From Gemmatimonadota bacterium (GTDB lineage Bacteria > Gemmatimonadota > Gemmatimonadetes > Gemmatimonadales > GWC2-71-9), in the NCBI GenBank assembly GCA_022562295.1, contig JADFPO010000019.1, forward strand, positions 1-43,088: a stretch of DNA of 43,088 nt, in the 5' to 3' direction. How positions within the stretch are numbered: position 1 is the first letter of the stretch; each line of letters starts with the position of its first letter. Shown here piece after piece: positions 27,174 through 30,470 of the stretch. Below the pieces are notes generated by a model. The model did not search any database and was not told where the DNA came from. It saw only the letters and a program-made list of their open reading frames with translations. The position numbers and the translations under genes are program-made.

Positions 27174-27217
27174 TTGCCTCACGGTACTTTCGGTGTATAT
27201 TCGGTATCATGACCGAA
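27174..27217 (+). promoter_or_regulatory. Promoter with SOS-like direct and inverted repeat, mutasome cassette
   Basis: TTGCCT (27174-27179) and TATATT (27196-27201) are 16 nt apart. TTCGGT occurs at 27189 and 27200, an 11-bp period (TTCGGT-N5-TTCGGT) over the -10. A third copy in reverse (ACCGAA, 27212-27217) makes the 18-bp palindrome TTCGGTATCATGACCGAA across the first start codon. The 11-bp-period direct repeat recalls the GTTC-N7-GTTC LexA box of alphaproteobacteria. Transcription would begin at or next to the ATG at 27209, giving a leaderless mRNA. Confidence 0.55.
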
Positions 27218-27400
27218 CAAACCCCGAAACTGATGCCCACTCGATTCGTTCCGAGATGGCCCCGCCGCAATCGCCCCCAAGAGGCACACGATCCATCCTC
27301 CCGGTCTGCTGTCTGCAGGTGCCCCGATTGCGGCGGGCCCGTCCATCCGGCGTCGGCCTGTTACTTCTGCCCGGTTTGTGGCTGGGGGCGGTGCAGCTGA
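27209..27400 (+). CDS. Small zinc-ribbon protein, first gene of mutasome cassette
   Basis: A 63-residue basic protein with seven Cys in its last 28 residues. CPDC is followed by ACYFCPVCGWGRCS, a zinc-ribbon pattern like the C-terminal ribbon found in some nucleotide reductases and nucleic-acid-binding proteins. The ATG lies immediately behind the predicted promoter, overlapping the inverted repeat, so translation is probably leaderless. The radical SAM gene starts 18 nt after its stop. Function is unknown; the position suggests a damage-inducible accessory factor. Codon use and the Cys spacing argue for a real gene despite the small size. Confidence 0.7.
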   Translation: MTEQTPKLMPTRFVPRWPRRNRPQEAHDPSSRSAVCRCPDCGGPVHPASACYFCPVCGWGRCS

Positions 27401-27418: not shown

Positions 27419-28681
27419 GTGGATCAAACAGAGCTGTTTCCTCTCCCAACCGCAGTGTCACCGTCGCCGAGTTTGCGGGTGCTCGACACCCGCATGCGTG
27501 GGGTGACCTTTGTGGAGCATCGGGTCAAAGCAATCGTGAACTCGCCCGAGAGTACGGGGATGGGATTCTGGTCAATCAACCCGTACATCGGGTGCGAGTT
27601 CGGTTGCACGTATTGTTATGCGCGATACGCCCACCGATATGCTATCGAGCGGATGCATGGCAATGGACAAATATCAGATGCCGACCTCTCGCGATTCCGC
27701 GAGTCAGAAAAGTGGGAGGTATTCGAACATCACATTTTCGTTAAGCAGCGAGATGCGGTTCTTGCAGCGCTCGAGCGAGATCTCTCCCGCATAAGACGAC
27801 GCCAAGCCGGTGGCCAGATTCATCCTATCGTCATCGGCACCGCCACCGATCCATATCAGCCGGCCGAACGACAATACCGCATTACACGTGCCGTACTCAC
27901 GCGACTGCGGGAAGAATCGAACCTCTCCATCGGCATCATCACAAAGAGTCCCCAAATCTGTCACGACATCGATGTACTCCGTGAACTGCAACGCAACAAC
28001 CGCGTGAGCGTGTACATCTCGTTGATCACAACAGACACACGGTTGATCAAGCTCTTTGAAGCACGTTCACCGATGCCTCACGTTCGGCTCAAGGCGTTGA
28101 AGCGATTGACGGATGCGAACCTCAACGCCGGTCTCATCGTCGCACCCGTGTTACCGGGAATCACCGACACCGTCCCACAAATTCGCGCGCTCGTTCAGGC
28201 ACTGAAAGACGCGGGAGGTCGGTTCGCCCACCCATCACCATTGCGGCTCTATCCCGCACTACACCGCGGATTCTTACCGATCATCGAGAAGAACTTCCCC
28301 GAGCTCTATCCGAAATACCGCCGCGCGTATCGTGGCGCCGGCATCGTACCCAAGAGGTACACTGACGCGATTCTCAATCGCTTCCGCAAAATCGCGAATG
28401 AGTTCGGAATTTCCGTGAACGATCCGATGATGGAGGCGATAGGGCGGGCAGGCGGGCAGGCGGGCGGGCGGGCAGACGGTAGGACGGTACGTCCATTACC
28501 GTCTGACCGTCGGGATGAGGGGCGGAGCGGCGGGGGCCCGCCGGGTTGGGTAGTGGGGTGGTGGGGGCCCGTCGGGATGGGCAGGGCGGCGGTGGGGACC
28601 TCCTCACCAGCGATCGCGCCGTGTGCGTCTGGATCCCACTGTTCGCACTTCGGGCAGAAGAGCGGCGGCGACCCGAGCTGA
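27419..28681 (+). CDS. Radical SAM protein (SplB/Rv2578c-like) with repeat-derived C-terminal tail
   Basis: Radical SAM enzyme of about 340 core residues. The [4Fe-4S] motif C-x3-C-x2-C appears as CEFGCTYCYARYAH (about residue 58), followed by VIGTATDPYQPAERQY, SIGIITKSP and APVLPGITD, all typical of the Rv2578c/spore-photoproduct-lyase-like group. The start is GTG. The core ends near NDPMMEA; the remaining 80 residues (GRAGGQAGGRADGR and onward) are a translation of a G-rich minisatellite, and the ORF then runs 61 nt into imuB. The original stop was probably lost to the repeat insertion. It takes the place that imuA has in classical imuA-imuB-dnaE2 cassettes. Its substrate is unknown. Confidence 0.85.
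   Translation: MDQTELFPLPTAVSPSPSLRVLDTRMRGVTFVEHRVKAIVNSPESTGMGFWSINPYIGCEFGCTYCYARYAHRYAIERMHGNGQISDADLSRFRESEKWEVFEHHIFVKQRDAVLAALERDLSRIRRRQAGGQIHPIVIGTATDPYQPAERQYRITRAVLTRLREESNLSIGIITKSPQICHDIDVLRELQRNNRVSVYISLITTDTRLIKLFEARSPMPHVRLKALKRLTDANLNAGLIVAPVLPGITDTVPQIRALVQALKDAGGRFAHPSPLRLYPALHRGFLPIIEKNFPELYPKYRRAYRGAGIVPKRYTDAILNRFRKIANEFGISVNDPMMEAIGRAGGQAGGRADGRTVRPLPSDRRDEGRSGGGPPGWVVGWWGPVGMGRAAVGTSSPAIAPCASGSHCSHFGQKSGGDPS
28445..28606 (+). repeat. Composite minisatellite, copy 1 (8-bp and 31-bp periods)
   Basis: At least four 8-bp units of the form CGGGCAGG start at 28445, 28453, 28461 and 28469, grading into CGGTAGGA. Then a 31-bp unit headed by GACCGTCGGG, GCCCGCCGGG and GCCCGTCGGG starts at 28505, 28536 and 28567, with a partial fourth head near 28597. 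The rest of each 31-bp unit is G-run-rich and could form G-quadruplexes on this strand. It covers the radical SAM tail and ends about 15 nt before the likely imuB start. The same layout recurs inside imuB. Confidence 0.85.
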
Positions 28682-30120
28682 GGGGAAAACCGACAGCGCT
28701 GTTGTCGGCTGAAGACACACGGCGGCTGTGGCAGGTTTCCTCCCGTGCACATCACGATGGCGTAAAACCCGGGATGACCGTGAGTCAGTCGATTGGCCTC
28801 TGCTCCGCACTCACGCTGGTGGAAGCCGACCCAGTCCATTACGACGAGCTGTTTTCCCGACTTTTACAGGCACTCAGCGATGTCAGCCCCGTCGTTGAGC
28901 CTGGGAAGTTGGGGTGCGTATACGTCGGCGTCGATGGATTGGATGGGTTGATCGGCGAGCCGAACAAAGTGCTTGCTGTGATTGATGCGGTGGTCAGGGA
29001 AGTGTGGTATGGCGAGTTGAAGCGACGGTGGGGAGTTGGACGGCCGAAGACGGTCAGGGACGGTCGAAGACGGTCGAGGACGGACAGGCGGGCAGACGGG
29101 CAGGCGGGCGGACGGGCAGGTGGACAGACGGGCAGAAGAGAGGACGGTCAAAGACGGTCGAAGACGATCGAGGACGATCGAGGACGATCGACGACGGATA
29201 GATCGCCTCGACCGTCGGGAAGGGCTGGTGAGGGGAGTGGGACCGTCGGGCTGGGTGGGGAGGTGGAAGGGAACCGTCGGGCGGGGGGTGGTGCTGGGCG
29301 GGACCGTCGGGTGGTGTGGAAGTTGGGATGGGCTAAAGGCAAGTTCCCCGCCTGGGTGGCCGCAACACGCGCCAAACCCGGCGAGCCCGTGGTAGTCAGT
29401 GAAAACGGGCTCGCTGAGTTTCTCTCGGCGCAGCGCATCGGCGCGCTGCCGCTCGAGCGTGATACCCACCGACGACTTTGGCAGCTCGGACTTCGGAAAC
29501 TGAGTGACCTCGTCGCGCTTCCCGAACAAGCCGTCGCATCGCAGTTCGGCCGGGAAGGACGCATGGCATGGCGTCTCGCCGCCGGGATGGTTTCCGAACC
29601 CGTCATCGGCAAAGAGTCACCACAACCGATTCGGGCCTCGATGCATTTTCCGACGCCCATTGCCGATCGAGGGATTCTCACCAACACAATCGGAAAACTC
29701 ACCGAACAAGCATTGCGGCATCCTCAACGCATAGGCTGGCGCGTCCGCTCGGTACGTGTCCGCGCCGCCTTGGAACACGACCGTTCCTGGATGATCGATG
29801 CGACACTCAAAGATCCATCGGCCGATAGAAAACACATCATGGCTCCGCTCATCGTGAAGCTCGACCAGACCCCACCCACCGGCACGGTCGAGCATCTCAT
29901 GGTGGAGTTCACCGCTTTCACACGTGGCACCAAGGAATTGCAGCTATTCGCACGCGATGCCGCTGCCGTTGCACGGTCCGGCCGGCAGCGCGCGTTGCGC
30001 TGGGCCGCACACGAAATCAGAACCCGTCTCCAGCGTCCCCTACTCCACCATATCATCGAGGTACACCCATGGTCGCGAATTCCCGAACGCCGGTACGCAC
30101 TCATCGACTACGACCCCTGA
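28621..30120 (+). CDS. imuB: ImuB-like Y-family polymerase homologue with internal repeat insertion
   Basis: Catalytically dead Y-family protein that, in known mutasomes, bridges DnaE2 and the sliding clamp during translesion synthesis. From the GTG at 28621 it has 499 residues: CVWIPLFALRAEERRRPELRGKP at the N-terminus, a palm segment YVGVDGLDGL in which the usual catalytic DE pair is absent, then KFPAWVAATRAKPGEPVVV, a helix-hairpin-helix region (LRKLSDLVALPEQAV) and a little-finger-like C-terminus. Residues about 143-230 are encoded by a minisatellite and are highly charged and probably disordered. They sit between a palm helix and the strand before KFPAWVAA, where close relatives have a short loop. 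The frame is preserved. The upstream extension to 28546 in the track is repeat translation. Confidence 0.85.
   Translation: MCVWIPLFALRAEERRRPELRGKPTALLSAEDTRRLWQVSSRAHHDGVKPGMTVSQSIGLCSALTLVEADPVHYDELFSRLLQALSDVSPVVEPGKLGCVYVGVDGLDGLIGEPNKVLAVIDAVVREVWYGELKRRWGVGRPKTVRDGRRRSRTDRRADGQAGGRAGGQTGRREDGQRRSKTIEDDRGRSTTDRSPRPSGRAGEGSGTVGLGGEVEGNRRAGGGAGRDRRVVWKLGWAKGKFPAWVAATRAKPGEPVVVSENGLAEFLSAQRIGALPLERDTHRRLWQLGLRKLSDLVALPEQAVASQFGREGRMAWRLAAGMVSEPVIGKESPQPIRASMHFPTPIADRGILTNTIGKLTEQALRHPQRIGWRVRSVRVRAALEHDRSWMIDATLKDPSADRKHIMAPLIVKLDQTPPTGTVEHLMVEFTAFTRGTKELQLFARDAAAVARSGRQRALRWAAHEIRTRLQRPLLHHIIEVHPWSRIPERRYALIDYDP
29049..29311 (+). repeat. Composite minisatellite, copy 2 (10-, 8-, 10- and 31-bp periods) inside imuB
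   Basis: Four 10-bp units (GACGGTCAGG, GACGGTCGAA, GACGGTCGAG, GACGGACAGG) occupy 29049-29088. Six 8-bp units of CGGGCAGA type occupy 29089-29136. Six more 10-bp units (GACGGTCGAA/GACGATCGAG) occupy 29143-29202. The 31-bp unit headed by GACCGTCGGG follows at 29210, 29241, 29272 and 29302. The head GACCGTC is the reverse complement of the 10-bp unit's GACGGTC, so the array can fold back on itself. No unit length is a multiple of three. Confidence 0.9.
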
Positions 30121-30350: not shown

Positions 30351-30358
30351 GTATAAAG

Positions 30359-30441
30359 TAAGTCGTGAGTAGTGAGTGGGGTGAGAGTGGTATTGCAACT
30401 CTGCGACTCACTTACTCACGACTTACTACTCACTACTCACC
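30359..30441. repeat. Long hairpin with 7-bp tandem units between DUF6504 and dnaE2
   Basis: TAAGTCGTGAGTAGTGAGT (30359-30377) pairs with ACTCACTTACTCACGACTTA (30406-30425) apart from one bulged base, around a 28-nt loop. The right arm continues into ACTTACT-ACTCACT-ACTCACC, a 7-bp tandem, to about 30441. CACGACTTA is seen once more at 30454. In the mRNA this stem would sit 46 nt before the dnaE2 ATG and could act as an attenuator, a processing site or a partial terminator; it could equally be a dispersed repeat. Confidence 0.65.
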
Positions 30442-30470
30442 TTCACGCCAAGGTCACGACTTAATCGGCC

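What the first reader, a model, noticed from the sequence alone, without database searches (positions are those of the whole stretch)
28445..29311. Two copies of a three-period composite minisatellite invade a mutasome cassette
Two separate arrays, about 450 bp apart, share the same layout: an 8-bp unit (CGGGCAGR), a GACGGT-type section (a clear 10-bp array only in the second copy), and a 31-bp unit headed by GACCGTCGGG. The 31-bp spacing is exact in copy 1 (28505, 28536, 28567) and nearly so in copy 2 (29210, 29241, 29272, 29302). The head of the 31-bp unit is the reverse complement of the core of the 10-bp unit. One array extends the radical SAM protein; the other inserts about 88 residues into ImuB. 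A repeat family with three linked periods is not one I recognise. An assembly artefact is possible because the arrays are similar.
Basis: seen in the sequence. Interest (0 to 1): 0.85.

Follow-up and report, generated by a model that had tools for sequence, protein, structure and literature searches.

The report
Stop-codon-anchored hairpins built from tandem repeats
The two arrays belong to a genome-wide family of short repeat elements whose two halves are mutually complementary, which usually sit directly behind gene stop codons, and one of which lies inside a DNA-repair polymerase gene at a site where other species of this bacterial family carry different repeat hairpins.

Summary
Both arrays exist, and the composite layout recurs. 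In the sampled part of the source genome (a 3.8-Mb Gemmatimonadota draft) I found 33 composites with 31-bp spacing, and the order 8-bp, 10-bp, 31-bp held in 24 of 25 multi-part arrays. It is not a plain minisatellite. The heads of the 31-bp unit are reverse complements of the 8- and 10-bp units at the same locus (63% of heads; 49% if left arms are swapped between loci, 12/10,000; 2.8% for random DNA). The composite is therefore a two-armed, imperfect hairpin element. Its left end lies within 10 nt of a same-strand stop codon in 19 of 27 cases (3.6 expected, 0/10,000). Array 1 fills a radical SAM/imuB junction where the genes overlap or nearly overlap in two congeners. Array 2 lengthens a palm loop of ImuB. 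At that same loop, 13 species of other genera carry heptamer hairpins (one reduced) whose unit type changed repeatedly in both arms. RAYT transposases carry their own REPs and are unlikely movers. Nearest published analogues: Xanthomonas/Nostoc G-rich heptamer repeats and intragenic REPs. Verdict: a new variant of a known kind. RNA 3'-end function is inferred; the means of dispersal is unknown.

The parts
28442..28597 (+). Array 1: one complete composite element (class B), filling the junction between the radical SAM gene and imuB
   Evidence: Aligns at 83% with a stop-anchored copy on another contig (L086 4140-4296 against window 28442-28597); another pair ends at 28595; alignment A3
28443..28479 (+). 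Left arm of array 1: 8-bp units GGCGGGCA
   Evidence: TRF
28475..28503 (+). Inverted core GACGGTA (28475-28481, 28483-28489) / TACCGTC (28497-28503)
   Evidence: Direct reading; paired in the predicted fold
28505..28597 (+). Right arm of array 1: 31-bp units with heads GACCGTCGGG, GCCCGCCGGG, GCCCGTCGGG
29038..29314 (+). Array 2: composite element (class A) in frame inside imuB, about 92 codons
   Evidence: homologues on contigs C82, C173, C103, C65
29038..29083 (+). 10-bp units GACGGTCRAR, first stretch
   Evidence: TRF
29079..29136 (+). 8-bp units GACGGGCA / GGCGGGCA
   Evidence: TRF
29143..29196 (+). 10-bp units GACGRTCRAR, second stretch
   Evidence: TRF
29210..29314 (+). Right arm of array 2: 31-bp units headed GACCGTCGGG (reverse complement of the 10-bp core GACGGTC) followed by G-rich tracts
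   Evidence: three G-quadruplex-type matches in array 2 on the sense strand
27419..28681 (+). Radical SAM ORF; its frame reads through array 1. In congeners the gene ends and overlaps or nearly overlaps imuB with no array
   Evidence: PF04055
28621..30120 (+). imuB (Y-family, PF00817), interrupted in frame by array 2; the only likely start codons upstream of VCVWIPLF lie in array 1
30351..30445 (+). Third tandem-repeat hairpin of the same cassette, other units (GAGTAGTGAGT / ACTCACTACTCAC), upstream of dnaE2
   Evidence: Fold z -6.3; 21 matches in the source genome, 0 in congeners

Best explanation
The two arrays are copies of a dispersed, species-specific repeat element of about 150-280 bp. 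A left arm of 8-bp and/or 10-bp tandem units is followed by a right arm of 31-bp tandem units, each headed by the reverse complement of a left-arm unit, so the transcript can fold into an imperfect multi-register hairpin with a G-rich right side. Copies share homology over most of their length, so they spread as units; unit numbers then change, probably by slippage. [quoted passage not shown] The most likely role is an RNA-level 3' element: transcript-end formation or stabilisation, or insulation between neighbouring genes. In the window one copy occupies a junction where the two genes overlap or nearly overlap in relatives. The other sits inside imuB, where it encodes an apparently disordered loop of the palm domain that the protein tolerates. 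SHOWN by sequence: arms, complementarity, stop anchoring, homology of copies, absence of arrays at the orthologous junction, recurrent occupation of the imuB loop. INFERRED: RNA function, slippage, unit-wise copying. UNKNOWN: the enzyme or process that moves it.
For: 33 composites with head spacing 30-31 bp in 57 of 61 intervals. Order 8, 10, 31 in 24 of 25 multi-part arrays. Locus-specific complementarity of arms (63% vs 49% permuted, 12/10,000; random genome 2.8%). Left end within 10 nt of a same-strand stop codon 19/27 vs 3.6 expected, 0/10,000; 0 of 63 at the other three kinds of gene edge, including stop codons facing the right end. All three stop codons are used, so the anchor appears to be the gene end rather than a DNA word. 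In convergent gene pairs hairpins run from stop codon to stop codon with fold z -8.0 and -6.0. Homology among copies. The radical SAM/imuB junction has no array in two congeners. Insert maps to the helix-strand connection of Pol IV (residues 118-141 of 4dez). U-tract terminator-like sites in the window are not above chance (10 found, 13.8 expected), and termination without poly-U is described (PMC8355165).
Against: Class A/B composites fold only slightly better than dinucleotide shuffles (z 0.0 to -1.8), because the G-rich right arm folds anyway. There is no transcript data. Some arrays lie in divergent intergenic regions (12 of 45), where a 3' role is impossible for that gene pair. An intragenic copy cannot be a terminator without cutting imuB. 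Gene starts and stops come from my own simple gene finder, and 21 of the 61 stretches analysed were chosen because they contain arrays or are the window.
Confidence: 0.55

Rival explanations
1. Purely selfish or neutral dispersed palindromic repeats (REP/MITE-like in life style) with no host function, tolerated behind stop codons and in protein loops.
For: Species-specific unit sequences; occasional intragenic copies; unit types replaced at a fixed imuB site without regard to phylogeny.
Against: Neutral tolerance does not predict left ends exactly at stop codons while right ends in convergent pairs keep away (19/27 vs 0/24). No terminal inverted repeats, target duplications or associated transposase found.
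Confidence: 0.27
2. Chiefly a G-quadruplex element: the G-rich sense-strand tracts of the 31-bp units act in DNA or RNA, and the complementarity is secondary.
For: Sense-strand G4-type matches in 15 of the 16 class A/B composites folded, none antisense. G-rich heptamers in Xanthomonas/Nostoc lie on the sense strand near stop codons and form G4 in vitro (PMC4692102).
Against: Arms co-vary with each other. The convergent-pair hairpins, the 30351-30445 element and the heptamer hairpins of relatives share the two-arm plan without sense-strand G4 motifs.
Confidence: 0.12
3. Canonical REP elements mobilised by RAYT (Y1) transposases.
For: Three Y1_Tnp genes in the genome; 21 of 25 family genomes with heptamer hairpins have Y1_Tnp against 38 of 77 without (Fisher p 0.002; not corrected for phylogeny).
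Against: The Y1 genes inspected carry their own different short palindromes on their flanks, not tandem-repeat arrays. No consistent GTAG/CGTC end tag.
Confidence: 0.04
4. Assembly artefact of a metagenome-assembled genome.
For: Arrays are enriched near contig ends (7 of 33 within 600 bp, 2.8 expected); draft genome of 210 contigs.
Against: Enrichment at ends means true repeats break the assembly. The layout recurs in 33 distinct contexts; imuB is open and conserved on both sides; separately assembled species show hairpins at the same codons.
Confidence: 0.02

Closest known systems
G-rich heptamer repeats GGGNATC of Xanthomonas and Nostoc (Rehm et al. 2015, PMC4692102), related to cyanobacterial short tandem repeats
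   Same: Short degenerate tandem units, genome-wide, intergenic, preferentially sense strand within 50 bp of stop codons; in Xanthomonas 70-75 convergent pairs form inverted repeats.
   Different: Here 8/10-bp units in one arm face 31-bp units in the other, in fixed order; left ends lie within 10 nt of the stop codon; no GGGNATC unit; another phylum.
REP/BIME palindromes with GTAG or CGTC tags (Di Nocera et al. 2013, PMC3733652)
   Same: Downstream of coding regions, likely RNA-acting, also found inside genes, notably DNA-repair genes including dnaE2; different REPs at about the same site of recB in two Xanthomonas species.
   Different: REPs are 20-40 bp single stem-loops with a GTAG/CGTC tag; here arms are tandem arrays, 150-280 bp, untagged, not linked to RAYT.
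Rickettsia palindromic elements (RPE)
   Same: Palindromic repeats inserted in frame into protein genes (described in PMC3733652).
   Different: No tandem-unit arms and no stop-codon anchoring known to me (own knowledge).
Intrinsic terminators without U-tract / hairpin clusters (PMC8355165)
   Same: Hairpins within 80 nt after the stop codon.
   Different: Not previously described as dispersed repeat families with tandem-unit arms (own knowledge).

Membership tests
REP (GTAG or CGTC superfamily) | Terminal unpaired GTAG or CGTC tag | tested here: not met
   The element starts at TAA, TAG or TGA (3, 8 and 13 of 24); CGTC occurs only inside the heads that match the left arm
REP (GTAG or CGTC superfamily) | Single 20-40 bp stem-loop | tested here: not met
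   Elements of 150-280 bp with tandem-unit arms
REP (GTAG or CGTC superfamily) | Copies flank RAYT genes (GTAG type) | tested here: not met
   Flanks of the 3 Y1 genes of this genome and of those of relatives shown carry other short palindromes (output partly cut)
REP (GTAG or CGTC superfamily) | Located downstream of genes, between co-directional or convergent ORFs | tested here: met
   33 of 45 arrays in convergent or tandem intergenic regions; sense-strand stop anchoring
Xanthomonas/Nostoc G-rich heptamer repeats | Seven-base GGGNATC-type unit | tested here: not met
   Units are 8, 10 and 31 bp; relatives use GCGGANY heptamers
Xanthomonas/Nostoc G-rich heptamer repeats | Sense strand close to the stop codon | tested here: met
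   19/27 within 10 nt
Xanthomonas/Nostoc G-rich heptamer repeats | G-quadruplex formation | not testable with these tools
   Only sequence motifs on the sense strand
Rickettsia palindromic element | Palindromic insert in frame inside a conserved gene | tested here: met
   imuB array 2 and the heptamer hairpins of 12 relatives
Rickettsia palindromic element | Sequence homology to RPE families | not tested
   No RPE sequences were compared; Rfam, which may not hold them, gave nothing above threshold
Canonical intrinsic terminator | GC-rich hairpin followed by a U-tract | tested here: not met
   No T-run follows the arrays; terminator-like sites in the region not above chance and none at the arrays

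The most novel reading that the evidence does not exclude
These are a class of propagating elements whose target is the end of a gene rather than a DNA word and whose two arms are renewed together, for example by fold-back copying of one arm from the other. The imuB palm loop would then be a long-lived slot in an SOS mutagenesis gene where such hairpins are exchanged wholesale between unit types.
Probability: 0.15. Interest if true: 0.85.

Novelty: new variant of a known kind. Interest (0 to 1): 0.58.

Why it matters
It links two loosely described things, stop-proximal G-rich tandem repeats and intragenic palindromes, in one architecture, and shows them in a little-studied phylum. The imuB loop gives a natural series of related genes with and without hairpins, and with swapped hairpin types, in which origin, arm conversion and effect on an error-prone polymerase cassette can be tested. 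A text search of 5.39 million open papers for six of the repeat sequences found none.

Tried and rejected
RAYT/REP mobilisation (Y1 genes have their own REPs). Rfam families (nothing above gathering score; weak chance hits on the 30351-30445 hairpin). Canonical U-tract terminators (not above chance). Target specificity for one stop codon word (all three are used). Local expansion up to the coding boundary (right ends in convergent pairs do not abut stop codons). The idea that every imuB insert is drawn from its own genome's repeats fails for G001, whose GAAACGGC array is found once in that genome. Enrichment of stop-free 10-bp units in imuB is not significant (0 of 9 stop-forming units against about 17% elsewhere). 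AlphaFold with a two-row alignment gave low confidence (mean pLDDT 46), consistent with but not proof of a disordered insert. The reversed-sequence control for 8-bp units is weak because GACGGGCA is mirror-symmetric up to rotation.

Full report
Observation. TRF reports the 8-, 10- and 31-bp arrays, and the heads of the 31-bp unit fall at 28505/28536/28567 and 29210/29241/29272/29302. Two details need correction. In array 1 the second and third heads are GCCCGCCGGG and GCCCGTCGGG, not GACCGTCGGG. In array 2 the 8-bp stretch is flanked on both sides by 10-bp stretches. The exact double-head pattern occurs 8 times in the source genome, never in the reversed control, and in none of 100 relatives.

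A genome-wide family. The window lies in a 3.79-Mb, 210-contig genome. The nearest named imuB is from a Gemmatimonadetes MAG (77% identity in the best segment). A DNA search with array 2 finds 43 places. In about 783 kb of G000 sequence (the window, 20 contigs chosen because they carry hits, and 40 stretches chosen without regard to hits) 64 arrays were found. Among multi-part arrays the order 8, 10, 31 held in 24 of 25. I identified 33 distinct composites with heads spaced 30-31 bp in 57 of 61 intervals. Copies are homologous over most of their length: array 2 matches contig C82 at 90% over 161 bp and contigs C173 and C65 at 82-85%, and array 1 matches C135 copies at 83%. Array 1 shares its left start at the stop codon and its right end (28595-28597) with those copies.

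What the three periods are. The head of each 31-bp unit is the reverse complement of a left-arm unit: GACCGTC pairs with the 10-bp core GACGGTC, GCCCGCC with the 8-bp core GGCGGGC, GCCCGTC with GACGGGC, and TACCGTC with GACGGTA. Across 33 composites 63% of heads have their exact 7-nt complement in their own left arm; swapping left arms between loci gives 49% (12 of 10,000 permutations reach the observed value), random genomic DNA 2.8%, and the uncomplemented head 17%. The composite is thus a two-armed imperfect palindrome whose arms have different periods. In this and related genomes simpler versions exist in which both arms have the same units: stop-to-stop hairpins in convergent pairs (fold z -8.0 and -6.0), and the 30351-30445 hairpin upstream of dnaE2 in the same cassette (z -6.3). 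The class A/B composites themselves fold only weakly better than shuffles (z 0.0 to -1.8).

Stop-codon anchoring. Using gene calls from a simple codon-usage predictor, the left end lies within 10 nt of the stop codon of a same-strand upstream gene in 19 of 27 cases (3.6 expected by random placement within the same intergenic regions; 0 of 10,000 simulations). It lies that close to none of the other edges: 0/18 upstream starts, 0/21 downstream starts, 0/24 facing stops. TAA, TAG and TGA all serve, so the anchor appears to be the gene end and not a sequence. Canonical terminator-like sites are not above chance in the window. An RNA 3'-end role is the most economical reading, but it is an inference.

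Array 1 and the radical SAM gene. In two congeners (G001, G002) the radical SAM gene and imuB overlap or nearly overlap and no array is present. Here the array replaces the variable tail. The TAG at 28440-28442 is out of the radical SAM frame, so the ORF reads through to 28681. Whether this is real or a base error cannot be told without reads.

Array 2 and the imuB loop. The insert lies between helix and strand of the palm domain, at Pol IV residues 118-141. Both ImuB flanks are unchanged in length and under purifying selection against congeners (dN/dS about 0.1). Loop length from GVDGL to WVA is 145 aa here, 67-70 aa in congeners, 47 aa in the shortest orthologues. In a supported clade of 13 species in other genera (100/99) the same loop holds long hairpins of heptamer units GCGGANY facing their complements, with fold z about -6 to -11; one member (G119) is reduced. 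On the ImuB tree (loop left out) hairpin presence looks like one gain, but the unit type (GCGGAAC, GCGGATT, GCGGAGT/AAT) changes repeatedly in both arms; sister species G117/G113 and G018/G047 (each 100/98) differ. These heptamer hairpins are genome-wide in 25 of 102 family genomes with none in the reversed control, and in the sample read they sit mostly in short gaps between co-directional genes. G001 has another array (GAAACGGC units) at the site, found once in that genome.

How it moves. I found no transposase link. The three Y1_Tnp genes of this genome, and those of relatives shown, are flanked by their own conventional palindromes. Hairpin-bearing genomes have Y1_Tnp more often (21/25 vs 38/77), but this is not corrected for phylogeny. 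The 10-bp family is patchy: many copies here, a few in two species of a different genus (G111, G109), none in congeners G001 and G002.

Known relatives. G-rich heptamers in Xanthomonas and Nostoc share location, strand and inverted pairing (PMC4692102). REPs share the downstream position and occur inside DNA-repair genes, including dnaE2 and a shared recB site (PMC3733652). Neither definition fits fully, so this is a new variant of a known kind. None of six repeat sequences searched appears in the open literature held.

Limits. One draft genome; my own gene calls; a partly biased sample; regex definitions of arrays; no transcript or long-read data.

Noticed in passing
27189-27204 (and L088 about 2669-2690; loci): Conserved direct repeat TTCGG-N6-TTCGG upstream of the radical SAM/imuB/dnaE2 cassette here, and directly upstream of imuB in many family genomes: candidate LexA/SOS operator.
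   Followed up: partly
27211-27399: Small Cys-rich zinc-ribbon-like ORF (about 62 aa) between the candidate operator and the radical SAM gene, conserved in L088; no Pfam match.
   Followed up: no
L069 7156-7747 and L071 (reverse) 732-1311: A small FmdB-like gene with an array on each side is present twice (92.6% over 594 bp) in different upstream contexts, as if arrays mediated the duplication; strain variation not excluded.
   Followed up: partly
L144, L145, L146 (G000 C178, C41, C96): Three RAYT-like Y1 transposase genes, each with its own different REP-type palindromes.
   Followed up: partly
L075 650-800, L080 5660-5800: Third composite class: 8-bp arm facing a GTAGCTC-repeat arm that pairs only through G-U wobbles, suggesting pairing in RNA (fold z -2.7, -2.9).
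   Followed up: partly
L205 (G111) and L204 (G109): The same 10-bp GACGGTC unit forms ordinary two-armed hairpins in another genus; in L204 and on the facing gene in L205 it appears to run into the C-terminus of the neighbouring protein.
   Followed up: partly
L218 (G046): Stop-anchored 8-bp array and its complement on either side of what looks like another inserted palindrome: nested repeats.
   Followed up: no
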